This document shows, one piece after another, positions 1-64,000 of a DNA stretch of 64,000 nt. The stretch lies in assembly GCA_003999685.1 (NCBI GenBank), contig CP021224.1, positions 2,170,001 to 2,234,000 of the forward strand. The letters run 5' to 3'. Made by a program: the position numbers and the translations under genes. The notes beneath the pieces were generated by a model, which was not told where the DNA came from, searched no databases, and worked only from the letters and a program-made list of their open reading frames with translations. Origin of the DNA: Taiwanofungus camphoratus. Taxonomy: Eukaryota; Basidiomycota; Agaricomycetes; Polyporales; Taiwanofungaceae. Each line of letters begins with the position of its first letter. The stretch's first letter is position 1.

Positions 1-417
1 CGGTCCACTGCACCCTCTGAGCGCCGTGAGCACTCGCCACTCATCACCGGGGGCGTGTTGCTGCGCTGCGCTCACAGCGCCTCCGCCGATCTCCTCGCTC
101 TCAACGTTCTGGCACTGGCCGCGCCAACGCGCCAGATCCACAATACGACTCGGACTGCCCTCGGCCCCTTGCCGTTCCCATCCCCCCACTTCTCACACTC
201 GATCTCCTCTCCGTTTCGCGGAACTCACTCATCTCGCGTGCGCACTCGGGTCGTCGAGAAGCTGCCAGGCACCCAACGCGACCGGAACGAACATGCGCGC
301 AGCGCCTCGAGATGCTCGCGCACGCCCCAGGACTCGGGTGCGTATTCAGACCGTCTTCTGGAGCCTTGGGTCTGGACAACGACGCTCGCAGGGCGGCGGG
401 ATGGGCTTTACTGGTAA
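1..417 (+). CDS. 3' end of the plus-strand candidate gene from the preceding unit
   Basis: This is the last exon of the gene described at 8377-9296, cut by the window's left edge, with its stop at 415-417. Its presence shows that the array continues leftward beyond the window. Confidence 0.35.
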   Translation, partial: RSTAPSERREHSPLITGGVLLRCAHSASADLLALNVLALAAPTRQIHNTTRTALGPLPFPSPHFSHSISSPFRGTHSSRVRTRVVEKLPGTQRDRNEHARSASRCSRTPQDSGAYSDRLLEPWVWTTTLAGRRDGLYW

Positions 418-641
418 GCGTCCTCTTCCATATCGAGTGCTGACAGTGCCCCGCCCACAGACCATTTCATCCCGTCATCCACGGCTCGCGACTGGCAACC
501 ACCTCACACCGAGCACGTTCGCGAACTGCGCGCGCGCGCGCTTCGCCTCGCATCACCCTCGACTCCCGCGCGCAGACGATTTCCGGCCTCGCGCAGAGGT
601 ATCCGCCTGCGCCTTTCTGGCATGCCGATGACGAGGGGCAG
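414..641 (+). other. Intron-like element and CG run downstream of the plus-strand gene
   Basis: Positions 414-460 look like a 47-base intron: GTAAGC donor, GCTGACAG branch region, CCCACAG acceptor. It lies at the predicted stop codon, so it may be a 3'-UTR intron or a sign that the gene continues in another frame. After it comes an alternating CG run (about 525-540) of a type that can form Z-DNA. No gene is supported between 461 and 641. Confidence 0.35.
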
Positions 642-1531
642 TTGATGCGAATGCCCGGCATGACACGGCCGTGGTTGGGTGTGTGCCGCTAGGTACGTAA
701 CGTCGGTCTTGCTTTCCCTCGGCTCGCTAGGCCTCGCTCTTGGCCGATTTTGACGGTGAGGACTCGTACAGCCGTCTCCGCCGCCCGCGAGGCACTCGTA
801 CTGGCCGTACCGACGCTGCCCGCAGCTGGTCCCCGCTCGCCGTTCCACGTGCGTTTGGCCAGTTGCCTAGCAGCGGCCATCCAGCCTGCTCGCGGACTCG
901 ATTCGCTTGCGCACAGGGCAGGGTCGAGCTCGTCGCGGTTTCCCATATACAGCCATGGGGAAGCTGCATAGCCGACGCTGCGCGCTGTATGAGCGGCGAG
1001 CACCTCGGCGTGCTCGAGGATTGGGGGGCGGACGGGGATGCGTCTTTCCTCCCCGAATCTCGGCGCTGAACGCGGCGCGAGTGCCGCAACGCACCGCACC
1101 GCACCGCACCACGACCGAAAGTGTAACTACGGTACGGTACTCGGTTATTCTTAATAATACTGCCCCCGCCTCCTCCACGCTTTTGTGCCCGCCCTGCCAA
1201 CGGGGCCACTCACGCCACGAGCCCGATGTCTGGGACGTTCTGAACGGCAGTGTGAGTTTAGCGGCGGACCAACTCAAACGAACCGGTACGTACCTGTGAT
1301 GCGCGAAGGGGAGAGATATAACGCGATGAAGGGCGAGCGGTCGATGGTGCTGGTGCCCTCGCCACCGTGACGATCATGCGACGGCGAGCGCAGTCAAGCC
1401 ACTCGACCGCATCACGAACGGGGGGAGCATGGTGGAGGAGCGCTGCAGGTAGGTAGCAGGCATGTCAGTACATAGATTGGCGGAAATATAGGTACGTTCC
1501 CTACCTCATTCATCGACGGTGAACGGCGTGC
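642..1531. repeat. Internal direct repeat A
   Basis: About 890 bases that align along their length with 1546-2414. Shared blocks include ggccgtggttgg, gctggtccccgctcgccgtt, cgagcacctc, aactacggtacggta and cgacggtgaacggcgtgc. It contains a CACCG pentamer run (about 1,085-1,110). On the minus strand it holds two well-formed intron shapes, 1443-1504 (GTAGGG, CTGAC, CTGCAG; 62 bases) and 1240-1293 (GTACGT, GCTAAAC, TTCAG; 54 bases), with an open exon between (1294-1442). A G-run near 1,420 is six bases in copies 1 and 3 but seven in copies 2 and 4-8, so the frame there differs between copies. Coding status is unproven. Confidence 0.8.
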
Positions 1532-1545
1532 CTTCACGAGTGGGG

Positions 1546-2414
1546 CATTGTGAATGCCCAGCGTGACGATATGGCCGTGGTTGGATGTGCCACTGGGTAC
1601 GCAACGTCAGCCTTGCTTCCACTCGGCTCTGGCTTGCTGAGCCCTGCTCCTAGCCGATTTCCACGCACACAGCCGTCTCCAACCACTGTCTCCGACACAC
1701 TCATGCTGGCCATACCGACGCTACCCGGAGCTGGTCCCCGCTCGCCGTTGCCTAGCAGCGGCTATCCTGCCTGCTCGGCGACTCGATTCGCCTGCGAACA
1801 GCGTAGAGTCGAGCTTGTCGCGGTATCCCACTCAGCCAAGGGGAAGCTGCATAGCCGATGCGAGCACCTCAGTGCGCTCGAGGAATGGGGGATGGACGGG
1901 TTCACCATGCCCGTCTCTCCTCCCCAAATCTCAGCGCTGGGTCCCAGCTAGCCGAGAACGAACGGGCTGCGAGCGCCGCAACGCACCGCCCAGCGCACAC
2001 GACCACGTCCAAGAGCGTAACTACGGTACGGTAATCCAACATCTTTATAATACTGCCGCTGCCTCCTCCTTGTCCCTCCACGCTTTTGCGCCCGCCCTAC
2101 CAACGGCCAGCGGAGCTATGAGCGCGATGTCTGAATTCAGCGGCGGGCCAACTCAACCGAACCGGTACGTACATGTGATGCCCGAAGCAGAGAGATGAAG
2201 CGATGGAGAGCGAGGCAAAGGGTGAGCGGTCAATGGCGCTGGCACCCTCACGAATGTGCACAGATGTTCACGGACAGCGAGCGCAGTCAAACGACTTGAC
2301 CGCATCGTGAACGGGGCATGGTGAGGCACCAGAGGTAGGCAGCAGGCACGTCAGCACGTAGATCGACGGAAATCAAGGTATGTTCCCTACCTATCTTCGA
2401 CGGTGAACGGCGTG
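1546..2414. repeat. Internal direct repeat B
   Basis: The second half of the old tandem duplication, clearly diverged from A by many substitutions and small gaps. Compared with A it lacks the CACCG run. It lacks the CTGCAG acceptor (the matching position reads CTCTGG), so the first intron shape is lost. It has a TATAAAG on the minus strand where A has TATTAAG. Repeats A and B recur in every complete copy at the same offset. Confidence 0.8.
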
Positions 2415-2424
2415 CGAAGCGCAT
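2287..2424 (-). CDS. Small ORF of 45 residues downstream of the TATA promoter
   Basis: Starts at the strong-context ATG (2424) with MRFARRSPSKIG and runs to a TGA at 2287-2289. A GTAGGG donor-like site follows codon 11, and in repeat A the matching site begins a good intron, so this may be only a first exon. No family was recognised. Confidence 0.2.
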   Translation of the reverse strand: MRFARRSPSKIGREHTLISVDLRADVPAAYLWCLTMPRSRCGQVV

Positions 2425-2555
2425 GGTGGCGGAAGTGTTGGCATCATCGAGGTAAGCCTGATCGAGAAAAGAGAGGGAAACCACGGAGACTGAAAAGGTA
2501 ACGGGAGGAAGAGAGAGAACAGCAGCGAGAACACCCACCGATTTATACCCCCAAT
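2422..2555 (-). promoter_or_regulatory. Minus-strand TATA promoter with strong start context
   Basis: Reading the minus strand: ATTGG (an inverted CCAAT, plus-strand 2551-2555), TATAAA (2547-2542), a long CT-rich leader, then GCCACCATGCG with the ATG at 2424-2422. Order and spacing match a fungal RNA polymerase II promoter with a pyrimidine-rich 5' leader. It is conserved in all seven complete copies. It would drive transcription into repeats B and A. Confidence 0.45.
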
Positions 2556-2940
2556 CCTCCGCCTCGTCCCCAGTCTGCTGACCCAACCCTCCATCATCCG
2601 CGCATCAATCAGGCGAAATGAATATCCACCGAGGCTACGCGAGAACGGAGGCGAGAGACGAGAGACGAGAAACGCCGCCCGTCTCACATTCGCTTGCGCA
2701 GCGTTCCTGCATGGCTCTCGTAATCCCGCCAGAGGCTACACGGGCGGTGCCCCAGCGATGGTGAGCTGTCCATGCTTGGGTTGGCACTTGCAGGGATGAC
2801 GGGTGGAAGTGACTGCTGCATTCTGTAGCGTCAGCGTCGGAAGGGGCAACGGAGAATGGGGTGCGGGAAGGACACACGGGAGACGAGAATTTGCATGTAC
2901 GTACCCGATCAGACCAAGCGCAATCGCTAGCGAACCTTCG
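2556..2940. other. Stretch with no supported gene
   Basis: Contains a short direct repeat (gagagacgagagacgag, about 2,651-2,669) and overlapping open frames on the minus strand. None has a convincing start or splice structure. It may be the upstream region of the TATA promoter at 2542. Confidence 0.4.
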
Positions 2941-3426
2941 CTACAAGCGAAATGAGTGGAAGATGTTTCCTCCCGCTGGAATTTGTCCAATTATGGAGAA
3001 ACACACCATATCTGTGAAATGAGCACTGCGAGATGAGAGTTCACGCACCCGGAAGGAGAGATGAGTGCATCCATACTCACACAGTCGAGATTCCAAAAAG
3101 GCTGGAAGCTTCATCCAGGTCTGCAACGACAAACCTTCCGGTGCAGTACAGAGAACTGCGCCACGCCACTGGCACTGCCTGAAGGATGTTCCAGTGGTGC
3201 AGGATTCTATGAAAGGGTAAGAATAGCTGAGACACTTTGGCGAGGATACATCACGCAAAAGTAACGTACCGTTGCGAGCGCGAACCTTCGCGTACCTCAG
3301 CGGTGGCTATTACGCGTGGAAGTTTGTATTTTGAAAATACGAAATGACGCGGCTGGGTAAATTCGCCCGTATCTCGGAATCTTTGTGACAGTGATGATGA
3401 GTACACGGAGCTCACAAAGGAACAAC
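2941..3426 (-). CDS. Spliced minus-strand candidate gene, 3' part (copy 1)
   Basis: Three exons join with matching phases. Exon 3270-3426 contains HFVFSKYKLPRVIA. A 63-base intron (3207-3269, GTACGT to TTCATAG) follows. Exon 3081-3206 contains ILHHWNILQAV, YCTGRFVVADLDEASS and FGISTV. A GTGAGT intron follows, ending either at 3026 (55 bases) or at 3012 (69 bases). The last exon ends at a TAG at 2941-2943 (first choice) or 2927-2929 (second choice). Without these introns every frame is interrupted, so phase agreement is the main support. An acceptor TTGTCAG precedes the first exon, so the gene starts further upstream, but I could not link it to an ATG. The family was not recognised. Confidence 0.42.
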
Positions 3427-3540
3427 CTGACAACAATGGGTGTCATGTCAGGAATACTGCTGTCAGTAGGCACAAGGTCTCGTTGCAATTTATGTTAATG
3501 GATGGGGAGCTCTCCGTTGTAGCCTAAATGGAATAAATAT

Positions 3541-4457
3541 CTAGGCAGGAGCACGAAAAACGACAACAAACGAAAATGAACAGCACGCGCACTTACCTCA
3601 ATTGTGAAGATCTTGTCCTTCGACTTCGAATATCCGTAACAATAATAAATCACTCACCCTAAGATGGGACTTGAAGTCACGGCAAAGCCAATGAGGGACT
3701 CCCGGATGTGACGTGGATCTGGGATCGTCGCTGATTAGATTGCCCCAGAGAGTGCGAGCAAACGAGTGTCAATTCCAGTTCGTACACCAACGTTCTGCAG
3801 TTTCATGCTTGAAATTAGACCAAGGACATGCATACGGCCCCAACTCAGTCAGTAAATTGTAGCACACTGCACACGTGGGCATATGTAATTCAATAGACCG
3901 TTCCATTCCATTCACGTTGCGATTAGTATACAAAGATTTGAGACCAGAGGATCGAGCTTTGTGCGATGGAGAAGGCTCAATGAAATGCTCGAGATTGACC
4001 AATCAGCCTTGTATGCTCACAGACAATTGGATGTACGACTTGAACTTGACATCAGGTTGGTTGTGGGCTGACACTCTGGGCTGCTAGCACATTCATGAAC
4101 TCCAGGACATACATTTTTGCAGTTCTACTATGTCAATCAATTGTGTTTCGAGACAAAACCGCTCATAGATAAGATAAAAGTCAGATCAGCAGTACCACGG
4201 ACTCGGTCACACGGTGACACCACTGAAACTGCGGGAGGAATAAAATTCACACGGGAGACGATGGCGGACATAATTTGATCAGACGTAAAGGAAGAGTGAG
4301 CCGAGGCAAAGAACGATTTGCGACGGCTGTACATTAGGCAAAACATGATGGAATATTCTTGTTGATAGCAACCATCGCGCGACGGCATAATCGCAAGGTA
4401 TAAGAGCACGTTGTAGTCCGACGTGTTCGAGTCTCCCGTATGCCTCCATAATGCCAT
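3541..4457 (-). other. AT-richer segment with minus-strand exon-like pieces
   Basis: Probably upstream exons of the candidate gene at 2941-3426, or relics of them. A near-ideal 56-base intron lies at 3541-3596 (GTAAGT to CTGCCTAG), preceded by an open piece ending DKIFTIE. Position 3769-4002 encodes a stretch with CAVC, YACPWSN and ERWC, spaced as in metal-binding segments. From an ATG in good context (4457) a 106-residue frame runs to 4137 (starting MALWRHTGDS), while another frame of the same DNA (EAYGRLEHVG) looks equally protein-like. I could not join these into one gene. Functional and decayed versions are both possible. Confidence 0.3.
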
Positions 4458-4623
4458 TTTGAAATGTTATCTAAGCTCGAAAGCCAAGAAGACAACATGG
4501 GTAGGTGTATCTTTTAACGTGAAGAGCATGAGCTGATGATGATCACGTTCTCCATAGTTTGCTGAGCGCTTCATGAGTATTTCTGAGTGAAAAGCGGCCA
4601 AAACGACGATATATGTACATATC

Positions 4624-5150
4624 GCCGTCCCGTGAGCAGCCCTCTGTGTATTCTCAGCATTGGGCACACAGGAGTGTCCCTGTGAGTATGGTGAGCTTTG
4701 AGCTCCCGCCGTTCACGCAGTCACTACACGGGTCAAAAGCAGGGCCACCGTCACGATATCTGTAGATATCGACGTCCCGCGAGCAGGGGCAGGAGGCATA
4801 GCGCGGGGCAGATTTTGTGTTTCCAACTCTGAGGAGCGTGCCTGTAAGCACAGCGGTCCTCACAAGCTTCGAGCTCTCATACAGTGATCCTCGCAGTGAT
4901 CCTCGCGAGCTTCGAGCTCCCATGCAGTCATCGAGCATGCACCAGCCCTATGTCTACGACGTGGGTGAAATTAAGGCCGCCATTACAAAATCTACATATA
5001 TCGACGTCCCGCGAGCAGGGGTAGAAGACCATCTCAAAGACATATTTTTTTCGTCCCGTGAGCAGGAGCGAGAGGTCATAGCGGGCGGCATCATCCCGTT
5101 TGCTTGTGAGCATCACAGTTCTCACAAGGCTCAAGTTCTCATTGGGTGAG
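4624..5150. repeat. Degenerate tandem repeats with a cccgYgagcag core
   Basis: The core cccgtgagcag or cccgcgagcag occurs at 4629, 4776, 5008 and 5055, flanked by related blocks such as gagctcc/gagctct, cacaagcttcgagct and gatatc/atatatc gacgtcccg. Read on the minus strand two units give matching peptides, PCSRDVDIYRYRDGG (about 4,740-4,790) and PCSRDVDICRFCNGG (about 4,970-5,020), each preceded by a LVRTxxLT segment. The resemblance at protein level suggests coding ancestry. Frames are interrupted between units unless spliced. Confidence 0.6.
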
Positions 5151-6100
5151 TGGTTCGGATCTCAACCGTTGCGCAATTGTGCTCACGCAACCTCCAAAAA
5201 CGACGCTCTGTTGTTCAAAACAACAGCGCACCACCAGCAGTACTTACAAGGCCTCGAAATGGCGTATCACCGCAATAAAAAAAAAAAAGGGCTGACGTAC
5301 AAGGCCTTTCCTACCCTGTAAATGGCATCTTTCTGTGGAAAACGAGGCTGCGGTGAGGTATGAGCTAACGGAGTACCAACTTGAACCACTTCACCGGAAG
5401 GGTGAGTGATTCCGATTCTATCATTGTGCGCGAAGTGCACTAACTGTGATTTGAAGCGGCACTTACACAACCTCCAAACGAGTACATCACCGGCACAGGA
5501 CGTCGAACTGGCGTTCTGCTGCGAAAAACCGAGCCGACGAACGAGGCAGCAGGCCCTATTCCGATGCCTGTTCTGCCGTCGTATCAGCACCCACCGGTGA
5601 GTGATTGCGATCCCAACCAACCATGATTGAGGGCAGTACTTACGAGAGCGTGCCACGGGACCCTTGCTGCGAAACACGAGAGCGTGCCAACCCTGCGCTG
5701 GGGTTTCAGCCGTTGCGCGTTATCCATGCCAAGGGGGGGGCCACCTACTGACGAGAAATCCTATCGAGGACGTCTGCGGGTGAGTGATTCCGACCTCCAC
5801 CGTGATTCAGGGCAGTACTTATGTGAGAGCGCACCACAGGACCTTTGCTGCGAAAAACGAGAGCGCACTAACCCCATGCTAGGGTTTCAGCTGTCTTTTC
5901 TGCGGAGCGAATGAGGGCTTGGGCCATCGCGCTGACTTACCCGTGGGGGCACATCATCTTGTCCCTGTGAAAAGGGGAAACCACGTGAGTGAACGGAGCC
6001 AAAGACTGCTGTGGACTTACCTAGCGCTACCGGGGGCACATCGTCTTGCGTGCCCCGGAATTGATGAAAAACCGAGTGTCCCTGCGGGGAGGGGAAACCA
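5146..6100. repeat. About five degenerate tandem repeats carrying splice-site-like motifs on both strands
   Basis: GTGAGT (plus strand, mostly GTGAGTGATTCCGA) recurs at 5146, 5402, 5597, 5780 and 5985, about every 180-256 bases. On the minus strand GTAAGT, or one ATAAGT, recurs at 5247, 5466, 5643, 5823, 5940 and 6020. In the last five units it is preceded by a pyrimidine-rich CAG (AG at 5519, 5667, 5849, 5965 and 6082). These minus-strand pairs would bound exons of 52, 23, 25, 24 and 61 bases. A run of 12 As (about 5,277-5,288) lies in the first repeat. I cannot say whether it is transcribed. Confidence 0.55.
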
Positions 6101-6102
6101 TG

Positions 6103-8024
6103 TCAGTCCACATAGCCAAAAAGTGCTCTGATCTTATCTGTTTTTACCCCTAACCTCCCTGCACACCAATCCCCTTCAACGAACGTAAGCATCCCACGCC
6201 CTCGCAACATGCCCTCCTCCACCTCGGCAGGCTCGCTTGTAGACGCCATACAACCAGCGCCTCCAACCATCAGCCCCAGCCCCAGCCCCAGCCCTACACC
6301 TGCGCCCTGCCCACCAGCCAACGTGGAGACAGGCGCGCCGGCTGGGGTGGGTGGGTACAGCGAGAACGGCGATGGTGGAGCCAGCGCGGGGGATGGCAGC
6401 GCCCGCAGCGCAAGCGTGCGTGGAGGCAACGCGAACGCGACGAGCGTCGGGGACCGCGGAGACCGTGGTGAACGAGGCGAGCGCGGGGACAAGGGCGACG
6501 TGGGCGACGGGTACAACGCCGACAGAGGCGGAGTTGCGCCAGGCCCGCTGGAGATGCCGCGCGATGAGAAGTACTCGCCCACCTCGGTGCTCTCAACCAC
6601 CCTCTTGTCCTTCACCACGCCCGCCTGCGCGAAATAGCCTCCGCCGGGCGACCGCACGCGGATTTGCTCGTCCCCGGCATTGGTGAGAGCAGGCGTGTCG
6701 CTCTCGGGCTCTGACGCGACGTCCGTATCTGTCGTGTCCGTCGACATGTCCGTCTCGGTGTCTGGCTCGGGTTCTGGTTCCGTGTCACTGGGAGATGCGG
6801 AGGGGGCCGGAGAGCTGGGCGTGTGCAAGGGCGAGGACGGAGTTGTTGGAGGAGACATGGGGATGGTCGAGTGCGAGGCAGCCTCTGGCATGGTCAGCCG
6901 CTGACTCTCACACGGCTCCCCAGCACCAGGCACCAGCTCGCCAGCCTCGGGCGCGTCCATGAGCCGGACGAACATCATGTTGAGCCGCTGCTTAGGCGGG
7001 GGGGCAGGCATGGACTGCGGCTCGGGGAGGCGTGGGGGTGTCTCCTGCACTGGAAGCAGCGGCAGGAATGCGAATGTACGCGACAGGCGCGACGGCGTGA
7101 GTGTCGGCGTCGGGGGAGATGGCGGAGTGGCGTCGGTGGACGAGCCGGACGGTGTGCGGACGTGAATCTCCGGGATGGGGAGCCGAGTCGGTGATGGTGC
7201 GAGCGAAGTAGCGGCCATATCGGGCTGCAATGGCGGAGAACGCGGAGGAGACGGCTCCGGCTCCGGCTCCGGCTCAGAGGGAGTGTCAAGCAGAGGCAGG
7301 AGACGGATGGGGACGGCGTCGAGGTACGGCAGGATGGCCGGATCGACCGCTTCGGGGTCTGCCCGACGATTCTTCCAGCGCGCGGGCGTGTGCGACGGCT
7401 GTGTGGCGAAGCGCGAGTACGGGAACGACGGCGGGTGGCTGGGGGATGGGTCTGGAGGGGCCGGTGGAAGAGACGTCGTGAATGGCTGGCGTGGCGTGGG
7501 GCAGGGAGCCGTGCGGGGAAGACACAGCCGCAGCTGCTTGAGCTCGAGAACGTCCCTGTAGAGCGACAAGGCGTTAGCGTCCAGCATTAACATTAAGTAA
7601 CGGCGGAGAAACGGGGACCCTCCGCCAGTGGGATCAGGCACAACCGATGCAGCGCAGGAACACTGGCTGACAACGGTCATCCATGACGTCGTCCGAGCCC
7701 TTGCCCGATTAGGCAACTCTCCCAGTCCTGCGCGCACACGACTGCGCCCGAACGCTGCGAGACAAAAAAAAAAAGGCACACGCACTGGTAAGACAGCCTC
7801 GGCGTTACCGGCGCAGGCGAGCGATCCCACTCGTCTGCCTCGTGCACCTCCTCCAGCGCCTCCTCCTCGCAGAACGACACCCGCTTCTGCATCCCCATCC
7901 CCTCCCGTCCTGGTGGCGGTGGACTGGGCGACCCCCGCCCGCACTCGGACCCACTCGGCGTCGACGCTTCGCTCACGTCCGGCGTCAGCGGCGGGGTCGT
8001 CTTGAGGCAGCTCTTCCGCGGCAT
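6103..8024 (-). CDS. Ser/Pro-rich protein with SILK-like and RVxF PP1-docking motifs (copy 1, intact)
   Basis: Two exons: 7786-8024 and 6103-7555, joined across an intron at 7556-7785. The intron starts GTGCGT and ends CTACAG, with a GCTAACG branch site at about 7571-7577. The product is 563 residues. ATG at 8024 has a purine at -3. The N-terminus has SCLK (residues 5-8), close to the SILK motif, then KRVSF (47-51), a classic RVxF docking motif of protein phosphatase 1. HEADEWDRSP (61-70) and LSYQDVLELK (77-86) follow. The last spans the splice, so splicing restores a continuous motif. I recall similar ADEWDR/LSYQ-LLELK blocks in uncharacterised Agaricomycete proteins. The rest is low complexity: EP repeats, SPR repeats and a GL run near the C-terminus. 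A role as a phosphatase-docking protein is inferred. At 230 bases the intron is long for a basidiomycete, so a second small exon inside it cannot be excluded. Confidence 0.8.
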
Positions 8025-8376
8025 CTCGGCGTGTTCGACGCTAGCTGGCAGGTTGGTCGAGTGGAAGCGCCAGCGTGTGGTGGGTAGAGTGACGGGAGGG
8101 CAGGAGAGGGCCAGTCGTAGAGTCGCCTTGTAATGTAGAAAGCAGCTGTCTCACCGAAAGGGGCCCCGCCGGAAGCAATGCTGCCAAATTATTGGCCTGC
8201 CCAGTCACGTGACAGGCCGTCCTTTATCGCGCAGGAAGGATCCGGGATGAGAGAGCGCCCGCCCGCCACACCGCCGCCCGCTCGCCGCGCGTGACGAGCG
8301 CAGGGCCCTAAGACTCTTTGGTGCTGTGTCTACGACTCTGCTGGTGCCCTGCCGACGCTTGCACGACGAGCGCAAC
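8025..8376. promoter_or_regulatory. Divergent promoter between the two best genes
   Basis: This 352-base gap separates the ATG of the minus-strand Ser/Pro-rich gene (8024) from the first ATG of the plus-strand candidate (8377). It holds a perfect 10-base palindrome GTCACGTGAC (8204-8213) around a CACGTG E-box, the type bound by fungal bHLH factors such as Cbf1/Pho4. An inverted CCAAT box (ATTGG, 8191-8195) lies 8 bases away. No clear TATA box was seen. The arrangement recurs in every complete copy, for example the palindrome at 61,527-61,536 in copy 7. Copy 4 has one-base changes next to it. Confidence 0.55.
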
Positions 8377-9296
8377 ATGCTCAACGACTTTCCAGCTGCT
8401 GCTCGGGCGTCGATCGACTCGATCTCAATGGACGCGCGATATTCGCGGTATGACTGCCCGGCACTTCGCACGCTCAGCGCGCTCTCTGCCAGGACCCTCT
8501 CGAGGCGCAACCGCTCTCTCCTCTCGTTCGCATCTCGAGCCGCCCAGCCGCTCACTCAGTATTCCGACAGCTTGGAGTCCAGTCTGGTAGACGAGACGAG
8601 CGCCGAGACTGGGGTGGCAGGTGCGCTTTCCTCGATCCACCACCGGCATCCTGGGCTACAGTGCCCGCTGTCCGTGTCGATTTCCGCATACGCTGCGCTT
8701 GGTGCGCCCGTGCCATCTCTTCCACGCTGACGTTCGTATGCACGTGCCGTGTGTGCGCTGTTTCCGATGCCCGTACAACTCATGCTCCGAGCGTAGCATG
8801 CGCGCGGTGCGTGAGTTCCACCATGCAGGGCGCGCGCGCTTGCGCCTGTCTTCTCTCTCCCAGGCTTGTGCTGGTCGGTCGGTCCACTGCACCCTCTGAG
8901 CGCCGTGAGCACTCGCCACTCATCACCGGGGGCGTGTTGCTGCGCTGCGCTCACAGCGCCTCCGCCGATCTCCTCGCTCTCAACGTTCTGGCACTGGCCG
9001 CGCCAACGCGCCAGATCCACAATACGACTCGGACTGCCCTCGGCCCCTTGCCGTTCCCATCCCCCCACTTCTCACACTCGATCTCCTCTCCGTTTCGCGG
9101 AACTCACTCATCTCGCGTGCGCACTCGGGTCGTCGAGAAGCTGCCAGGCACCCAACGCGACCGGAACGAACATGCGCGCAGCGCCTCGAGATGCTCGCGC
9201 ACGCCCCAGGACTCGGGTGCGTATTCAGACCGTCTTCTGGAGCCTTGGGTCTGGACAACGACGCTCGCAGGGCGGCGGGATGGGCTTTACTGGTAA
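8377..9296 (+). CDS. Candidate spliced plus-strand gene, unknown function
   Basis: The ATG at 8377 opens an exon to 8620 rich in Ser, Arg and Leu, with G or C in most third codon positions. A model joining 8377-8620, 8662-8806 and 8864-9296 stays open for 273 residues. Its introns are 8621-8661 (41 bases, short) and 8807-8863 (57 bases, GTGCGT to a pyrimidine-rich CCCAG, in frame, so retention would also keep the frame). The middle exon has paired cysteines (CAWC, CTCRVC), which could bind metal. The TAA stop at 9294-9296 lies inside a GTAAGC donor, and splicing there also makes TGA. Several frames are open in this GC-rich DNA, so exon choice is uncertain. No family was recognised. Confidence 0.35.
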
Positions 9297-11821: not shown

Positions 11822-12307
11822 CTACAAGCGAAATGAGTGGAAGATGTTTCCTCCCGCTGGAATTTGTCCAATTATGGAGAAACACACCATATCTGTGAAA
11901 TGAGCACTGCGAGATGAGAGTTCACGCACCCGGAAGGAGAGATGAGTGCATCCATACTCACACAGTCGAGATTCCAAAAAGGCTGGAAGCTTCATCCAGG
12001 TCTGCAACGACAAACCTTCCGGTGCAGTACAGAGAACTGCGCCACGCCACTGGCACTGCCTGAAGGATGTTCCAGTGGTGCAGGATTCTATGAAAGGGTA
12101 AGAATAGCTGAGACACTTTGGCGAGGATACATCACGCAAAAGTAACGTACCGTTGCGAGCGCGAACCTTCGCGTACCTCAGCGGTGGCTATTACGCGTGG
12201 AAGTTTGTATTTTGAAAATACGAAATGACGCGGCTGGGTAAATTCGCCCGTATCTCGGAATCTTTGTGACAGTGATGATGAGTACACGGAGCTCACAAAG
12301 GAACAAC
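11822..12307 (-). CDS. Spliced minus-strand candidate gene, copy 2
   Basis: Same three-exon pattern as at 2941-3426, with all splice sites kept and no length change seen. Confidence 0.4.
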
Positions 12308-52452: not shown

Positions 52453-52804
52453 CTCGGCGTGTTCGACGCTAGCTGGCAGGTTGGTCGAGTGGAAGCGCCA
52501 GCGTGTGGTGGGTAGAGTGACGGGAGGGCAGGAGAGGGCCAGTCGTAGAGTCGCCTTGTAATGTAGAAAGCAGCTGTCTCACCGAAAGGGGCCCCGCCGG
52601 AAGCAATGCTGCCAAATTATTGGCCTGCCCAGTCACGTGACAGGCCGTCCTTTATCGCGCAGGAAGGATCCGGGATGAGAGAGCGCCCGCCCGCCACACC
52701 GCCGCCCGCTCGCCGCGCGTGACGAGCGCAGGGCCCTAAGACTCTTTGGTGCTGTGTCTACGACTCTGCTGGTGCCCTGCCGACGCTTGCACGACGAGCG
52801 CAAC

Positions 52805-53724
52805 ATGCTCAACGACTTTCCAGCTGCTGCTCGGGCGTCGATCGACTCGATCTCAATGGACGCGCGATATTCGCGGTATGACTGCCCGGCACTTCGCACG
52901 CTCAGCGCGCTCTCTGCCAGGACCCTCTCGAGGCGCAACCGCTCTCTCCTCTCGTTCGCATCTCGAGCCGCCCAGCCGCTCACTCAGTATTCCGACAGCT
53001 TGGAGTCCAGTCTGGTAGACGAGACGAGCGCCGAGACTGGGGTGGCAGGTGCGCTTTCCTCGATCCACCACCGGCATCCTGGGCTACAGTGCCCGCTGTC
53101 CGTGTCGATTTCCGCATACGCTGCGCTTGGTGCGCCCGTGCCATCTCTTCCACGCTGACGTTCGTATGCACGTGCCGTGTGTGCGCTGTTTCCGATGCCC
53201 GTACAACTCATGCTCCGAGCGTAGCATGCGCGCGGTGCGTGAGTTCCACCATGCAGGGCGCGCGCGCTTGCGCCTGTCTTCTCTCTCCCAGGCTTGTGCT
53301 GGTCGGTCGGTCCACTGCACCCTCTGAGCGCCGTGAGCACTCGCCACTCATCACCGGGGGCGTGTTGCTGCGCTGCGCTCACAGCGCCTCCGCCGATCTC
53401 CTCGCTCTCAACGTTCTGGCACTGGCCGCGCCAACGCGCCAGATCCACAATACGACTCGGACTGCCCTCGGCCCCTTGCCGTTCCCATCCCCCCACTTCT
53501 CACACTCGATCTCCTCTCCGTTTCGCGGAACTCACTCATCTCGCGTGCGCACTCGGGTCGTCGAGAAGCTGCCAGGCACCCAACGCGACCGGAACGAACA
53601 TGCGCGCAGCGCCTCGAGATGCTCGCGCACGCCCCAGGACTCGGGTGCGTATTCAGACCGTCTTCTGGAGCCTTGGGTCTGGACAACGACGCTCGCAGGG
53701 CGGCGGGATGGGCTTTACTGGTAA
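52805..53724 (+). CDS. Candidate plus-strand gene, copy 6/7 junction
   Basis: Repeats the exon pattern seen at 8377-9296 without visible change. Confidence 0.33.
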
Positions 53725-56248
53725 GCGTCCTCTTCCATATCGAGTGCTGACAGTGCCCCGCCCACAGACCATTTCATCCCGTCATCCACGGCTCGCGACT
53801 GGCAACCACCTCACACCGAGCACGTTCGCGAACTGCGCGCGCGCGCGCTTCGCCTCGCATCACCCTCGACTCCCGCGCGCAGACGATTTCCGGCCTCGCG
53901 CAGAGGTATCCGCCTGCGCCTTTCTGGCATGCCGATGACGAGGGGCAGTTGATGCGAATGCCCGGCATGACACGGCCGTGGTTGGGTGTGTGCCGCTAGG
54001 TACGTAACGTCGGTCTTGCTTTCCCTCGGCTCGCTAGGCCTCGCTCTTGGCCGATTTTGACGGTGAGGACTCGTACAGCCGTCTCCGCCGCCCGCGAGGC
54101 ACTCGTACTGGCCGTACCGACGCTGCCCGCAGCTGGTCCCCGCTCGCCGTTCCACGTGCGTTTGGCCAGTTGCCTAGCAGCGGCCATCCAGCCTGCTCGC
54201 GGACTCGATTCGCTTGCGCACAGGGCAGGGTCGAGCTCGTCGCGGTTTCCCATATACAGCCATGGGGAAGCTGCATAGCCGACGCTGCGCGCTGTATGAG
54301 CGGCGAGCACCTCGGCGTGCTCGAGGATTGGGGGGCGGACGGGGATGCGTCTTTCCTCCCCGAATCTCGGCGCTGAACGCGGCGCGAGTGCCGCAACGCA
54401 CCGCACCGCACCGCACCACGACCGAAAGTGTAACTACGGTACGGTACTCGGTTATTCTTAATAATACTGCCCCCGCCTCCTCCACGCTTTTGTGCCCGCC
54501 CTGCCAACGGGGCCACTCACGCCACGAGCCCGATGTCTGGGACGTTCTGAACGGCAGTGTGAGTTTAGCGGCGGACCAACTCAAACGAACCGGTACGTAC
54601 CTGTGATGCGCGAAGGGGAGAGATATAACGCGATGAAGGGCGAGCGGTCGATGGTGCTGGTGCCCTCGCCACCGTGACGATCATGCGACGGCGAGCGCAG
54701 TCAAGCCACTCGACCGCATCACGAACGGGGGGGAGCATGGTGGAGGAGCGCTGCAGGTAGGTAGCAGGCATGTCAGTACATAGATTGGCGGAAATATAGG
54801 TACGTTCCCTACCTCATTCATCGACGGTGAACGGCGTGCCTTCACGAGTGGGGCATTGTGAATGCCCAGCGTGACGATATGGCCGTGGTTGGATGTGCCA
54901 CTGGGTACGCAACGTCAGCCTTGCTTCCACTCGGCTCTGGCTTGCTGAGCCCTGCTCCTAGCCGATTTCCACGCACACAGCCGTCTCCAACCACTGTCTC
55001 CGACACACTCATGCTGGCCATACCGACGCTACCCGGAGCTGGTCCCCGCTCGCCGTTGCCTAGCAGCGGCTATCCTGCCTGCTCGGCGACTCGATTCGCC
55101 TGCGAACAGCGTAGAGTCGAGCTTGTCGCGGTATCCCACTCAGCCAAGGGGAAGCTGCATAGCCGATGCGAGCACCTCAGTGCGCTCGAGGAATGGGGGA
55201 TGGACGGGTTCACCATGCCCGTCTCTCCTCCCCAAATCTCAGCGCTGGGTCCCAGCTAGCCGAGAACGAACGGGCTGCGAGCGCCGCAACGCACCGCCCA
55301 GCGCACACGACCACGTCCAAGAGCGTAACTACGGTACGGTAATCCAACATCTTTATAATACTGCCGCTGCCTCCTCCTTGTCCCTCCACGCTTTTGCGCC
55401 CGCCCTACCAACGGCCAGCGGAGCTATGAGCGCGATGTCTGAATTCAGCGGCGGGCCAACTCAACCGAACCGGTACGTACATGTGATGCCCGAAGCAGAG
55501 AGATGAAGCGATGGAGAGCGAGGCAAAGGGTGAGCGGTCAATGGCGCTGGCACCCTCACGAATGTGCACAGATGTTCACGGACAGCGAGCGCAGTCAAAC
55601 GACTTGACCGCATCGTGAACGGGGCATGGTGAGGCACCAGAGGTAGGCAGCAGGCACGTCAGCACGTAGATCGACGGAAATCAAGGTATGTTCCCTACCT
55701 ATCTTCGACGGTGAACGGCGTGCGAAGCGCATGGTGGCGGAAGTGTTGGCATCATCGAGGTAAGCCTGATCGAGAAAAGAGAGGGAAACCACGGAGACTG
55801 AAAAGGTAACGGGAGGAAGAGAGAGAACAGCAGCGAGAACACCCACCGATTTATACCCCCAATCCTCCGCCTCGTCCCCAGTCTGCTGACCCAACCCTCC
55901 ATCATCCGCGCATCAATCAGGCGAAATGAATATCCACCGAGGCTACGCGAGAACGGAGGCGAGAGACGAGAGACGAGAAACGCCGCCCGTCTCACATTCG
56001 CTTGCGCAGCGTTCCTGCATGGCTCTCGTAATCCCGCCAGAGGCTACACGGGCGGTGCCCCAGCGATGGTGAGCTGTCCATGCTTGGGTTGGCACTTGCA
56101 GGGATGACGGGTGGAAGTGACTGCTGCATTCTGTAGCGTCAGCGTCGGAAGGGGCAACGGAGAATGGGGTGCGGGAAGGACACACGGGAGACGAGAATTT
56201 GCATGTACGTACCCGATCAGACCAAGCGCAATCGCTAGCGAACCTTCG

Positions 56249-56734
56249 CTACAAGCGAAATGAGTGGAAGATGTTTCCTCCCGCTGGAATTTGTCCAATT
56301 ATGGAGAAACACACCATATCTGTGAAATGAGCACTGCGAGATGAGAGTTCACGCACCCGGAAGGAGAGATGAGTGCATCCATACTCACACAGTCGAGATT
56401 CCAAAAAGGCTGGAAGCTTCATCCAGGTCTGCAACGACAAACCTTCCGGTGCAGTACAGAGAACTGCGCCACGCCACTGGCACTGCCTGAAGGATGTTCC
56501 AGTGGTGCAGGATTCTATGAAAGGGTAAGAATAGCTGAGACACTTTGGCGAGGATACATCACGCAAAAGTAACGTACCGTTGCGAGCGCGAACCTTCGCG
56601 TACCTCAGCGGTGGCTATTACGCGTGGAAGTTTGTATTTTGAAAATACGAAATGACGCGGCTGGGTAAATTCGCCCGTATCTCGGAATCTTTGTGACAGT
56701 GATGATGAGTACACGGAGCTCACAAAGGAACAAC
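56249..56734 (-). CDS. Spliced minus-strand candidate gene, copy 7
   Basis: Same as at 2941-3426, with no change seen. Confidence 0.4.
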
Positions 56735-59410
56735 CTGACAACAATGGGTGTCATGTCAGGAATACTGCTGTCAGTAGGCACAAGGTCTCGTTGCAATTTA
56801 TGTTAATGGATGGGGAGCTCTCCGTTGTAGCCTAAATGGAATAAATATCTAGGCAGGAGCACGAAAAACGACAACAAACGAAAATGAACAGCACGCGCAC
56901 TTACCTCAATTGTGAAGATCTTGTCCTTCGACTTCGAATATCCGTAACAATAATAAATCACTCACCCTAAGATGGGACTTGAAGTCACGGCAAAGCCAAT
57001 GAGGGACTCCCGGATGTGACGTGGATCTGGGATCGTCGCTGATTAGATTGCCCCAGAGAGTGCGAGCAAACGAGTGTCAATTCCAGTTCGTACACCAACG
57101 TTCTGCAGTTTCATGCTTGAAATTAGACCAAGGACATGCATACGGCCCCAACTCAGTCAGTAAATTGTAGCACACTGCACACGTGGGCATATGTAATTCA
57201 ATAGACCGTTCCATTCCATTCACGTTGCGATTAGTATACAAAGATTTGAGACCAGAGGATCGAGCTTTGTGCGATGGAGAAGGCTCAATGAAATGCTCGA
57301 GATTGACCAATCAGCCTTGTATGCTCACAGACAATTGGATGTACGACTTGAACTTGACATCAGGTTGGTTGTGGGCTGACACTCTGGGCTGCTAGCACAT
57401 TCATGAACTCCAGGACATACATTTTTGCAGTTCTACTATGTCAATCAATTGTGTTTCGAGACAAAACCGCTCATAGATAAGATAAAAGTCAGATCAGCAG
57501 TACCACGGACTCGGTCACACGGTGACACCACTGAAACTGCGGGAGGAATAAAATTCACACGGGAGACGATGGCGGACATAATTTGATCAGACGTAAAGGA
57601 AGAGTGAGCCGAGGCAAAGAACGATTTGCGACGGCTGTACATTAGGCAAAACATGATGGAATATTCTTGTTGATAGCAACCATCGCGCGACGGCATAATC
57701 GCAAGGTATAAGAGCACGTTGTAGTCCGACGTGTTCGAGTCTCCCGTATGCCTCCATAATGCCATTTTGAAATGTTATCTAAGCTCGAAAGCCAAGAAGA
57801 CAACATGGGTAGGTGTATCTTTTAACGTGAAGAGCATGAGCTGATGATGATCACGTTCTCCATAGTTTGCTGAGCGCTTCATGAGTATTTCTGAGTGAAA
57901 AGCGGCCAAAACGACGATATATGTACATATCGCCGTCCCGTGAGCAGCCCTCTGTGTATTCTCAGCATTGGGCACACAGGAGTGTCCCTGTGAGTATGGT
58001 GAGCTTTGAGCTCCCGCCGTTCACGCAGTCACTACACGGGTCAAAAGCAGGGCCACCGTCACGATATCTGTAGATATCGACGTCCCGCGAGCAGGGGCAG
58101 GAGGCATAGCGCGGGGCAGATTTTGTGTTTCCAACTCTGAGGAGCGTGCCTGTAAGCACAGCGGTCCTCACAAGCTTCGAGCTCTCATACAGTGATCCTC
58201 GCAGTGATCCTCGCGAGCTTCGAGCTCCCATGCAGTCATCGAGCATGCACCAGCCCTATGTCTACGACGTGGGTGAAATTAAGGCCGCCATTACAAAATC
58301 TACATATATCGACGTCCCGCGAGCAGGGGTAGAAGACCATCTCAAAGACATATTTTTTTCGTCCCGTGAGCAGGAGCGAGAGGTCATAGCGGGCGGCATC
58401 ATCCCGTTTGCTTGTGAGCATCACAGTTCTCACAAGGCTCAAGTTCTCATTGGGTGAGTGGTTCGGATCTCAACCGTTGCGCAATTGTGCTCACGCAACC
58501 TCCAAAAACGACGCTCTGTTGTTCAAAACAACAGCGCACCACCAGCAGTACTTACAAGGCCTCGAAATGGCGTATCACCGCAATAAAAAAAAAAAAGGGC
58601 TGACGTACAAGGCCTTTCCTACCCTGTAAATGGCATCTTTCTGTGGAAAACGAGGCTGCGGTGAGGTATGAGCTAACGGAGTACCAACTTGAACCACTTC
58701 ACCGGAAGGGTGAGTGATTCCGATTCTATCATTGTGCGCGAAGTGCACTAACTGTGATTTGAAGCGGCACTTACACAACCTCCAAACGAGTACATCACCG
58801 GCACAGGACGTCGAACTGGCGTTCTGCTGCGAAAAACCGAGCCGACGAACGAGGCAGCAGGCCCTATTCCGATGCCTGTTCTGCCGTCGTATCAGCACCC
58901 ACCGGTGAGTGATTGCGATCCCAACCAACCATGATTGAGGGCAGTACTTACGAGAGCGTGCCACGGGACCCTTGCTGCGAAACACGAGAGCGTGCCAACC
59001 CTGCGCTGGGGTTTCAGCCGTTGCGCGTTATCCATGCCAAGGGGGGGGCCACCTACTGACGAGAAATCCTATCGAGGACGTCTGCGGGTGAGTGATTCCG
59101 ACCTCCACCGTGATTCAGGGCAGTACTTATGTGAGAGCGCACCACAGGACCTTTGCTGCGAAAAACGAGAGCGCACTAACCCCATGCTAGGGTTTCAGCT
59201 GTCTTTTCTGCGGAGCGAATGAGGGCTTGGGCCATCGCGCTGACTTACCCGTGGGGGCACATCATCTTGTCCCTGTGAAAAGGGGAAACCACGTGAGTGA
59301 ACGGAGCCAAAGACTGCTGTGGACTTACCTAGCGCTACCGGGGGCACATCGTCTTGCGTGCCCCGGAATTGATGAAAAACCGAGTGTCCCTGCGGGGAGG
59401 GGAAACCATG

Positions 59411-61347
59411 TCAGTCCACATAGCCAAAAAGTGCTCTGATCTTATCTGTTTTTACCCCTAACCTCCCTGCACACCAATCCCCTTCAACGAACGTAAGCAT
59501 CCCACGCCCCCACCCCAGACTTGGTCGCAACATGCCCTCCTCCACCTCGGCAGGCTCGCTTGTAGACGCCATACAACCAGCGCCTCCAATCCTCAGCCCC
59601 AGCCCCAAACCGAGCCCCACACCTGCGCTCTGCCCACCAGCCAACGTGGAGACAGGCGCGCCGGCTGGGGTGGGTGGGTACAGCGAGAAAGGCGACGGAG
59701 GGACCAGCGCGGGGGATGGCAGCGCCCGCAGCGCAAGCGTGCGTGGAGGCAACGCGAACGCGACGAGCGTCGGGGACCGCGGAGACCGTGGTGAACGAGG
59801 CGAGCGCGGGGACAAGGGCGACGTGGGCGACGGGTACAACGCCGACAGAGGCGGAGTTGCGCCAGGCCCGCTGGAGATGCCGCGCGATGAGAAGTACTCG
59901 CCCACCTCGGTGCTCTCAACCACCCTCTTGTCCTTCACCACGCCCGCCTGCGCGAAATAGCCTCCGCCGGGCGACCGCACGCGGATTTGCTCGTCCCCGG
60001 CATTGGTGAGAGCAGGCGTGTCGCTCTCGGGCTCTGACGCGACGTCCGTATCTGTCGTGTCCGTCGACATGTCCGTCTCGGTGTCTGGCTCGGGTTCTGG
60101 TTCCGTGTCACTGGGAGATGCGGAGGGGGCCGGAGAGCTGGGCGTGTGCAAGGGCGAGGACGGAGTTGTTGGAGGAGACATGGGGATGGTCGAGTGCGAG
60201 GCAGCCTCTGGCATGGTCAGCCGCTGACTCTCACACGGCTCCCCAGCACCAGGCACCAGCTCGCCAGCCTCGGGCGCGTCCATGAGCCGGACGAACATCA
60301 TGTTGAGCCGCTGCTTAGGCGGGGGGGCAGGCATGGACTGCGGCTCGGGGAGGCGTGGGGGTGTCTCCTGCACTGGAAGCAGCGGCAGGAATGCGAATGT
60401 ACGCGACAGGCGCGACGGCGTGAGTGTCGGCGTCGGGGGAGATGGCGGAGTGGCGTCGGTGGACGAGCCGGACGGTGTGCGGACGTGAATCTCCGGGATG
60501 GGGAGCCGAGTCGGTGATGGTGCGAGCGAAGTAGCGGCCATATCGGGCTGCAATGGCGGAGAACGCGGAGGAGACGGCTCCGGCTCCGGCTCCGGCTCAG
60601 AGGGAGTGTCAAGCAGAGGCAGGAGACGGATGGGGACGGCGTCGAGGTACGGCAGGATGGCCGGATCGACCGCTTCGGGGTCTGCCCGACGATTCTTCCA
60701 GCGCGCGGGCGTGTGCGACGGCTGTGTGGCGAAGCGCGAGTACGGGAACGACGGCGGGTGGCTGGGGGATGGGTCTGGAGGGGCCGGTGGAAGAGACGTC
60801 GTGAATGGCTGGCGTGGCGTGGGGCAGGGAGCCGTGCGGGGAAGACACAGCCGCAGCTGCTTGAGCTCGAGAACGTCCCTGTAGAGCGACAAGGCGTTAG
60901 CGTCCAGCATTAACATTAAGTAACGGCGGAGAAACGGGGACCCTCCGCCAGTGGGATCAGGCACAACCGATGCAGCGCAGGAACACTGGCTGACAACGGT
61001 CATCCATGACGTCGTCCGAGCCCTTGCCCGATTAGGCAACTCTCCCAGTCCTGCGCGCACACGACTGCGCCCGAACGCTGCGAGACAAAAAAAAAAAGGC
61101 ACACGCACTGGTAAGACAGCCTCGGCGTTACCGGCGCAGGCGAGCGATCCCACTCGTCTGCCTCGTGCACCTCCTCCAGCGCCTCCTCCTCGCAGAACGA
61201 CACCCGCTTCTGCATCCCCATCCCCTCCCGTCCTGGTGGCGGTGGACTGGGCGACCCCCGCCCGCACTCGGACCCACTCGGCGTCGACGCTTCGCTCACG
61301 TCCGGCGTCAGCGGCGGGGTCGTCTTGAGGCAGCTCTTCCGCGGCAT
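59411..61347 (-). CDS. Ser/Pro-rich PP1-docking-type protein, copy 7 (intact, variant C-terminus)
   Basis: Exons 61109-61347 and 59411-60878, fully open, 568 residues. It differs from copy 1 by a 15-base in-frame insertion (PSLGW in the protein, about 59,510-59,525) and about ten substitutions just upstream in the protein. The Gly-Leu run becomes GLGLGLGLRIGG, and several changes alter residues. The frame survives every change, which argues that this gene has been under coding constraint. Confidence 0.8.
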
Positions 61348-61699
61348 CTCGGCGTGTTCGACGCTAGCTGGCAGGTTGGTCGAGTGGAAGCGCCAGCGTG
61401 TGGTGGGTAGAGTGACGGGAGGGCAGGAGAGGGCCAGTCGTAGAGTCGCCTTGTAATGTAGAAAGCAGCTGTCTCACCGAAAGGGGCCCCGCCGGAAGCA
61501 ATGCTGCCAAATTATTGGCCTGCCCAGTCACGTGACAGGCCGTCCTTTATCGCGCAGGAAGGATCCGGGATGAGAGAGCGCCCGCCCGCCACACCGCCGC
61601 CCGCTCGCCGCGCGTGACGAGCGCAGGGCCCTAAGACTCTTTGGTGCTGTGTCTACGACTCTGCTGGTGCCCTGCCGACGCTTGCACGACGAGCGCAAC

Positions 61700-62619
61700 A
61701 TGCTCAACGACTTTCCAGCTGCTGCTCGGGCGTCGATCGACTCGATCTCAATGGACGCGCGATATTCGCGGTATGACTGCCCGGCACTTCGCACGCTCAG
61801 CGCGCTCTCTGCCAGGACCCTCTCGAGGCGCAACCGCTCTCTCCTCTCGTTCGCATCTCGAGCCGCCCAGCCGCTCACTCAGTATTCCGACAGCTTGGAG
61901 TCCAGTCTGGTAGACGAGACGAGCGCCGAGACTGGGGTGGCAGGTGCGCTTTCCTCGATCCACCACCGGCATCCTGGGCTACAGTGCCCGCTGTCCGTGT
62001 CGATTTCCGCATACGCTGCGCTTGGTGCGCCCGTGCCATCTCTTCCACGCTGACGTTCGTATGCACGTGCCGTGTGTGCGCTGTTTCCGATGCCCGTACA
62101 ACTCATGCTCCGAGCGTAGCATGCGCGCGGTGCGTGAGTTCCACCATGCAGGGCGCGCGCGCTTGCGCCTGTCTTCTCTCTCCCAGGCTTGTGCTGGTCG
62201 GTCGGTCCACTGCACCCTCTGAGCGCCGTGAGCACTCGCCACTCATCACCGGGGGCGTGTTGCTGCGCTGCGCTCACAGCGCCTCCGCCGATCTCCTCGC
62301 TCTCAACGTTCTGGCACTGGCCGCGCCAACGCGCCAGATCCACAATACGACTCGGACTGCCCTCGGCCCCTTGCCGTTCCCATCCCCCCACTTCTCACAC
62401 TCGATCTCCTCTCCGTTTCGCGGAACTCACTCATCTCGCGTGCGCACTCGGGTCGTCGAGAAGCTGCCAGGCACCCAACGCGACCGGAACGAACATGCGC
62501 GCAGCGCCTCGAGATGCTCGCGCACGCCCCAGGACTCGGGTGCGTATTCAGACCGTCTTCTGGAGCCTTGGGTCTGGACAACGACGCTCGCAGGGCGGCG
62601 GGATGGGCTTTACTGGTAA
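61700..62619 (+). CDS. Candidate plus-strand gene, copy 7/8 junction
   Basis: Repeats the exon pattern seen at 8377-9296 without visible change. It is the last complete instance before the array starts to diverge. Confidence 0.33.
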
Positions 62620-62843
62620 GCGTCCTCTTCCATATCGAGTGCTGACAGTGCCCCGCCCACAGACCATTTCATCCCGTCATCCACGGCTCGCGACTGGCAA
62701 CCACCTCACACCGAGCACGTTCGCGAACTGCGCGCGCGCGCGCTTCGCCTCGCATCACCCTCGACTCCCGCGCGCAGACGATTTCCGGCCTCGCGCAGAG
62801 GTATCCGCCTGCGCCTTTCTGGCATGCCGATGACGAGGGGCAG

Positions 62844-63747
62844 TTGATGCGAATGCCCGGCATGACACGGCCGTGGTTGGGTGTGTGCCGCTAGGTACGT
62901 AACGTCGGTCTTGCTTTCCCTCGGCTCGCTAGGCCTCGCTCTTGGCCGATTTTGACGGTGAGGACTCGTACAGCCGTCTCCGCCGCCCGCGAGGCACTCG
63001 TACTGGCCGTACCGACGCTGCCCGCAGCTGGTCCCCGCTCGCCGTTCCACGTGCGTTTGGCCAGTTGCCTAGCAGCGGCCATCCAGCCTGCTCGCGGACT
63101 CGATTCGCTTGCGCACAGGGCAGGGTCGAGCTCGTCGCGGTTTCCCATATACAGCCATGGGGAAGCTGCATAGCCGACGCTGCGCGCTGTATGAGCGGCG
63201 AGCACCTCGGCGTGCTCGAGGATTGGGGGGCGGACGGGGATGCGTCTTTCCTCCCCGAATCTCGGCGCTGAACGCGGCGCGAGTGCCGCAACGCACCGCA
63301 CCGCACCGCACCACGACCGAAAGTGTAACTACGGTACGGTACTCGGTTATTCTTAATAATACTGCCCCCGCCTCCTCCACGCTTTTGTGCCCGCCCTGCC
63401 AACGGGGCCACTCACGCCACGAGCCCGATGTCTGGGACGTTCTGAACGGCAGTGTGAGTTTAGCGGCGGACCAACTCAAACGAACCGGTACGTACCTGTG
63501 ATGCGCGAAGGGGAGAGATATAACGCGATGAAGAGCGAGGTGAAGGGGCGAGCGGTCGATGGCGCTGGTGCCCTCGCCACCGTGACGATCATGCGACGGC
63601 GAGCGCAGTCAAGCCACTCGACCGCATCACGAACGGGGGGGAGCATGGTGGAGGAGCGCTGCAGGTAGGTAGCAGGCATGTCAGTACATAGGTTGGCGGA
63701 AATATAGGTATGTTCCCTACCTCATTCATCGACGGTGAACGGCGTGC
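62844..63747. repeat. Internal repeat A of copy 8, older form
   Basis: Matches A until about 63,528, then carries about 13 extra bases (agcgaggtgaag plus G) that repeat B also has in related form (agcgaggcaaag). Copies 1-7 lack them in A. It also has gatggcgctgg as in B where A of copies 1-7 has gatggtgctgg. Confidence 0.75.
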
Positions 63748-63759
63748 CTTCTCTGGTGG

Positions 63760-64000
63760 GCCGGCCTTGTAAATGCCCAGCGTGACGACATCGCCGTGGT
63801 TGGATGTGCCACTGGGTATGCAACGTCAGCCTTGCTTCCAACCGACTCTGGAGCTCGCTGAGCCCTGCTCCTAGCCGATTTCAACAACATTGAGGATCCA
63901 CACTCACACAGCCGTCTCCGACACACTCATGCTGGCCATACCGACGCTACCCGGAGCTGGTCCCCGCTCCCCGTTGCCCTAGCAGCGGCTGTCCTGCCTG
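63760..64000. repeat. Internal repeat B of copy 8, partial and diverged
   Basis: Homologous to the start of B, but with substitutions throughout and a replaced block near 63,883-63,905 (aacaacattgaggatccaca). It is cut by the window end. Confidence 0.7.

What the first reader, a model, noticed from the sequence alone, without database searches (positions are those of the whole stretch)
1..64000. Array of an 8.88-kb unit holding a complete divergent gene pair, not rDNA
Seven full units and part of an eighth lie head to tail with almost no substitutions between them. In fungi arrays of this size and uniformity are normally rDNA, yet no rRNA-like sequence is present. Instead each unit carries a protein gene, a divergent partner and the shared promoter. 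That fits a recent amplification under selection for dosage, a subtelomeric or other unstable locus, or an array kept uniform by unequal exchange. The total copy number is unknown because the left end is outside the window.
Basis: partly seen in the sequence, partly recalled or inferred. Interest (0 to 1): 0.85.

Follow-up and report, generated by a model that had tools for sequence, protein, structure and literature searches.

The report
Tandem array of one gene
A stretch of probably fungal DNA repeats one 8.9-kilobase block, holding one convincing protein gene, at least seven times in a row with almost no real differences, which looks like a gene amplification of a known kind rather than ribosomal DNA.

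Summary
The array is real at sequence level: seven full head-to-tail units (8,879-8,896 bp) and parts of two more fill the window. No rRNA or tRNA is found, and no Pfam match above cut-off. (1) The gene pair is half supported. Each unit has one convincing spliced minus-strand gene (549 codons in unit 1). The divergent partner is not distinguishable from chance by ORF length and has only weak codon-position hints. (2) Outside one patch in unit 7, the differences between units are one-base indels, mostly beside the same base, with no true substitution; 89 of 97 deviating columns lie at 18-42 kb. That looks like long-read consensus error, so seven is an assembly estimate. Substitutions appear only at the right edge: a 194-bp patch in unit 7 (12 substitutions, 15-nt in-frame insertion) and unit 8 from base 63,533. 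This fits a chromosomal array homogenised by unequal exchange or break-induced replication, with a mosaic edge. I file it with CUP1-type gene-bearing tandem arrays: new member of a known kind. Dosage selection is untested; no homologue or whole genome was available.

The parts
1..200 (.). end part of a further unit; the window starts inside the array
   Evidence: median 24-mer multiplicity is 8 here
201..9079 (.). unit 1, 8,879 bp (unit start chosen at an arbitrary anchor)
   Evidence: one 1-base deviation from the majority
9080..17963 (.). unit 2, 8,884 bp
   Evidence: 6 one-base indels
17964..26850 (.). unit 3, 8,887 bp
   Evidence: 25 one-base indel columns
26851..35746 (.). unit 4, 8,896 bp
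   Evidence: 48 indel columns; its 6 'substitution' columns re-read by eye as misaligned one-base indels
35747..44628 (.). unit 5, 8,882 bp
   Evidence: 10 one-base indels
44629..53507 (.). unit 6, 8,879 bp
   Evidence: 1 one-base indel
53508..62402 (.). unit 7, 8,895 bp, differing from the majority only in a diverged patch
   Evidence: all 27 deviating columns lie in the patch
59510..59703 (.). diverged patch in unit 7: 15-nt in-frame insertion and 12 substitutions in the gene's 3' coding part
62403..63532 (.). start of unit 8, identical to unit 6
63533..64000 (.). diverged part of unit 8 up to the end of the window: 26, 29 or 34 mismatches by three alignments, and 24 gap bases
   Evidence: 26 mismatches; 747 of 800 identical with 24 gaps (29 mismatches); 34 mismatches and 24 gap columns
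6148..8024 (-). gene of unit 1: exon 7786-8024, 230-nt intron 7556-7785 (GTGCGT ... GCTAACG ... CAG), exon 6148-7555; 549 codons, then a probable intron 6082-6147 and a short last exon
   Evidence: ORF length test
15029..16908 (-). gene of unit 2 (same model; frame broken by 1-base indels)
23921..25795 (-). gene of unit 3 (frame broken by 1-base indels)
32800..34682 (-). gene of unit 4 (frame broken by 1-base indels)
41696..43573 (-). gene of unit 5 (frame broken near the 3' end by a 1-base indel)
50577..52452 (-). gene of unit 6 (frame broken in the 3' part by a 1-base indel)
59456..61347 (-). gene of unit 7, open, 554 codons, variant 3' coding part
8377..8730 (+).
45047..46844 (.). internal tandem pair of about 0.9 kb each, 70% identical (unit 6 coordinates; the other units align throughout)
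   Evidence: self-comparison: unit positions 419-1332 and 1326-2216

Best explanation
This is a chromosomal tandem array, probably recently expanded, of an 8.88-kb segment that carries one spliced protein gene and about 7 kb of mostly unassigned DNA. Shown: near-perfect identity of the units, one gene per unit, no rRNA, and substitution-level divergence seen only at the right edge. Inferred: an initial duplication was expanded by out-of-register recombination (unequal sister-chromatid exchange or ectopic break-induced replication), and the same process keeps the inner units identical while the edge unit holds tracts from a relative about 6-7% diverged. Inferred: the indels in units 2-5 are residual long-read consensus errors, so all copies may encode the same protein. 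The protein is rich in proline and serine, likely largely disordered, with one PP1-docking-like KRVSF motif. Whether its dosage was selected is unknown.
For: Unit structure. No true substitution among units 1-6. Outside the patch 87 of 91 indel columns lie next to the same base (the 4 exceptions are in unit 4), and indels fall in the coding part at about the average rate (19 of 91, 16.9 expected). Of all 97 deviating columns outside the patch, 89 lie in the 3-kb bins from 18 to 42 kb and 90% at 15.5-40.6 kb. Edge divergence. Coding frame: 525-aa ORF, reached by 0 of 300 shuffles, maximum 359; GC3 excess reached by 0 of 1000 shuffles. The unit-7 patch changes 7 codons synonymously and 4 not; four or fewer non-synonymous codons in 0.8-3.7% of simulations.
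Against: No reads, no genome and no second strain were available, so a circular-molecule concatemer or a miscounted assembly is not excluded. The left end is unseen. As assembled, only 2 of 7 gene copies are open; I attribute the other five frameshifts to consensus error, but real pseudogenes are possible. The 525-aa ORF used in the shuffle test begins inside the inferred intron and runs past the second exon, so it is not the same as the 549-codon model. The polarity of the right-edge differences is mixed: against the internal paralogous repeat, the tail matches it at 2 and 5 sites in the two stretches, the unit at 1 and 10, neither at 0 and 10.
Confidence: 0.72

Rival explanations
1. Assembly concatemer: an 8.9-kb circular molecule (extrachromosomal circle), or a short array looped by the assembler, written out as seven units.
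For: Units 1-6 are identical apart from consensus-error-like indels, and these peak in the middle of the window.
Against: Unit 7 has a distinct sequence patch, and unit 8 runs into diverged sequence at 63,533. A pure circle would not give such edge variants.
Confidence: 0.13
2. A long-lived macrosatellite-like array, held uniform by concerted evolution as rDNA is, rather than a recent event; the diverged edge is its older, unhomogenised rim. (Overlaps with the best explanation; differs in age.)
For: Inner units identical and edge unit mosaic, as expected of homogenised arrays.
Against: Age cannot be told from one window; a single recent burst gives the same inner identity.
Confidence: 0.3
3. 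The right-edge divergence is a switch between two haplotypes of a dikaryon or diploid in the assembly, not an array edge. (Compatible with a real array.)
For: The patch and the tail have similar divergence, about 6-7% by substitutions.
Against: Does not remove the array itself; cannot be tested without reads.
Confidence: 0.2
4. An rDNA array or rDNA variant.
Against: 0 Rfam matches in 64 kb at gathering thresholds, and 0 at E up to 1 over one unit.
Confidence: 0.01

Closest known systems
CUP1 array of Saccharomyces cerevisiae (passages of PMC12008805 seen)
   Same: Head-to-tail array of a unit with one protein gene; copy number differs among strains and can be changed by recombination or induced break-induced replication
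   Different: That unit is about 2.0 kb, has a replication origin and a metallothionein gene; here the unit is 8.88 kb, the gene product is unknown, and no origin, strain variation or selecting agent is shown
High-order yeast amplifications, 'macrotene' chromosomes (passages of PMC4317496 seen)
   Same: Large direct tandem repeats embedding genes
   Different: Those units are 30-50 kb in 12-22 copies and arose in genetically disabled laboratory strains
Fungal nuclear rDNA
   Same: Similar unit length (recalled), head-to-tail, uniform
   Different: No rRNA match in the unit

Membership tests
Gene-bearing tandem array (CUP1-type) | Several head-to-tail copies of a unit that contains a protein gene | tested here: met
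   (as assembled; not checked against reads)
Gene-bearing tandem array (CUP1-type) | Near-identical copies | tested here: met
   no true substitution among units 1-6
Gene-bearing tandem array (CUP1-type) | Copy number varies among strains and acts by dosage | not testable with these tools
   no reads, strains or expression data; no genome held
Fungal rDNA array | 18S-5.8S-28S genes in each unit | tested here: not met
Tandem array of a transposable element | Transposase, reverse transcriptase or other element domain in the unit | tested here: not met
   0 families in six frames of unit 6; 10 ORFs, two matches at E 0.09-0.11 far below cut-off. A non-autonomous element is not excluded
Divergent gene pair | Second coding gene on the opposite strand sharing the promoter | tested here: inconclusive
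   ORF length within the shuffle range (280-codon open frame reached by 31 of 300); GC3 excess P 0.08 and 0.04; no domain; no simple one-intron model
PP1-regulatory protein | [RK]x(0,1)[VI]{not P}[FW] docking motif (pattern recalled) | tested here: inconclusive
   one match, KRVSF; so short a motif can occur by chance

The most novel reading that the evidence does not exclude
A stable, rDNA-like macro-array of a non-ribosomal protein gene, kept uniform by concerted evolution and maintained for dosage of an uncharacterised, mostly disordered, PP1-docking-like fungal protein.
Probability: 0.15. Interest if true: 0.65.

Novelty: new member of a known kind. Interest (0 to 1): 0.4.

Why it matters
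If reads confirm it, it is a natural gene amplification with a large unit, outside the few well-studied yeast loci, and its mosaic edge could show how such arrays are homogenised. It also warns that units in the middle of a long-read array can carry many false frameshifts, which an annotation would read as pseudogenes.

Tried and rejected
Homologue searches led nowhere: Pfam, viral contigs with the first 177 residues (11 pattern matches, none confirmed), genome contigs with the same (393 pattern matches, none confirmed), PDB sequences with the same (0). None of the contig collections is a set of eukaryote genomes, so this says little about conservation.

No transposon-like terminal inverted repeat stood out: one search shows 25 of 33 short pairs, 70-89% complementary. 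tRNA: none, with ARAGORN in bacterial mode, which may miss some eukaryotic tRNAs. CpG depletion, as repeat-directed mutation or methylation could leave, is not seen: observed/expected 0.77-1.26 in 18 bins. The polarity test of the right edge was mixed. A simple one-intron search for the partner gene gave no candidate.

Paper searches for such an array (listings of 1 of 1, 8 of 8, 20 of 61, 12 of 90 and 9 of 9 papers) showed no title or abstract start that describes it; the organism is unknown and most subscription papers are not held, so this is weak. Searches were listings too; passages of three papers were seen.

Structure prediction was not run: no homologues, and the protein is rich in proline and serine.

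My slips: the codon-position rows are shifted by a base. One search gives right rows for the ORFs but joined the gene's exons one base out, so its gene row and codon comparison are wrong; one search corrects both.

Full report
Observation. The period is real. The commonest distances between successive identical 24-mers are 8,875-8,902. One anchor recurs at eight places and gives seven full units of 8,879, 8,884, 8,887, 8,896, 8,882, 8,879 and 8,895 bp, with 200 bp before and 1,598 bp after. The window begins inside a unit, so the left end is unseen. Rfam finds nothing in 64 kb at gathering thresholds and nothing with E up to 1 in 44,000-54,000. ARAGORN, in bacterial mode, finds no tRNA. The array is not rDNA.

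What differs between units. I aligned the seven units and counted deviations from the majority by alignment column: unit 1 has 1, unit 2 has 6, unit 3 has 25, unit 4 has 48 indel and 6 substitution columns, unit 5 has 10, unit 6 has 1, and unit 7 has 27, all in one patch. Read in context, the six substitution columns of unit 4 are misaligned one-base indels. So there is no true substitution among units 1-6. Outside the patch, 87 of 91 indel columns lie beside the same base. The 97 deviating columns outside the patch run from 1,419 to 50,714, with quartiles at 23.8 and 34.9 kb, and 89 of them lie in the bins from 18 to 42 kb. Indels fall in the gene at about the average rate, 19 of 91 with 16.9 expected. 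Biological drift would give mostly substitutions and no such gradient. I infer residual long-read consensus error in the part of the array that reads anchored in the flanks could not reach. No reads were available to test this. If it is so, the left end of the array may lie not far left of the window, but that is a guess.

Real variation. Unit 7 carries a patch at 59,510-59,703 with a 15-nt insertion and 12 substitutions. In the gene it is an in-frame insertion (PSLGW) and 11 changed codons, 7 synonymous and 4 not. Random substitutions give four or fewer non-synonymous codons in 0.8-3.7% of simulations, depending on region and transition bias: modest support for coding constraint. Unit 8 is identical to unit 6 up to 63,532 and then diverges, with 26, 29 or 34 mismatches and 24 gap bases in the last 468 bp of the window. 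Both diverged stretches differ by about 6-7% in substitutions, which fits one related donor or neighbouring copy. With the internal paralogous repeat as outgroup the polarity is mixed, so I do not say which side is ancestral.

Genes. The minus strand holds a spliced gene. In unit 1 the first exon is 7786-8024, a 230-nt intron with GTGCGT, a GCTAACG branch-like site and CAG is 7556-7785, and the second exon is 6148-7555: 549 codons. A second intron at 6082-6147 with a short last exon is probable. The 525-aa ORF of this region, which starts inside the inferred intron and runs past the second exon, is reached by 0 of 300 dinucleotide shuffles (maximum 359). GC by codon position is 0.67, 0.63, 0.75, an excess reached by 0 of 1000 shuffles. 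The protein has 107 prolines and 62 serines in 549 residues and one KRVSF motif. I recall similar N-termini in mushroom-forming fungi, but no call shows this, and the organism is not identified. As assembled the frame is open in 2 of 7 units, 1 and 7. The other five are broken by one-base indels, which I take to be false.

The partner. The longest plus-strand ATG ORF in 8200-9400 is 157 aa, reached by 65 of 300 shuffles; for 8200-10600 the figure is 108 of 300. A stop-to-stop frame of 280 codons is reached by 31 of 300. Against my reading, the ORFs 8377-8730 and 8823-9296 have a third-position GC excess like the gene's, but with P of only 0.08 and 0.04 in shuffles. No one-intron model with simple consensus signals was found from the 8377 ATG. 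No Pfam family reaches its cut-off. The partner is neither shown nor excluded.

Mechanism. The best reading is a chromosomal tandem amplification by out-of-register recombination, with inner units identical and a mosaic edge. CUP1 in budding yeast is the closest system: a unit of about 2.0 kb with one gene and a replication origin, 14 units in one laboratory strain, and experimental expansion by break-induced replication (passages of PMC12008805). PMC4317496 (passages) describes tandem units of 30-50 kb in 12-22 copies and calls amplification above about tenfold much rarer in eukaryotes. Passages of PMC10817607 report that the rDNA array of a mushroom could not be completed precisely even with long accurate reads. 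Dosage selection, age, location and total copy number remain open.

Verdict. It is a new member of a known kind, of moderate interest.

Noticed in passing
45047-46844 (unit 6): A tandem pair of about 0.9-kb segments at 70% identity inside the unit, more diverged than the units are from each other; the right-edge divergence begins within its first copy.
   Followed up: partly
about 4400-6150 in unit 1: Short imperfect direct repeats (74-79% over 55-120 bp) with splice-like motifs on the minus strand, read by eye; possibly duplicated small exons or a decayed gene tail.
   Followed up: no
about 3000-5000 in unit 1: GC falls to 45-49%, against 54-57% beside it and 62-67% in the rest of the unit; no ORF longer than shuffles give in 2200-6100 (106 aa, reached by 241 of 300). 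Nature unknown.
   Followed up: partly
18000-42000: Concentration of one-base indels (89 of 97 deviating columns outside the patch) that would make false pseudogenes in an automatic annotation.
   Followed up: yes
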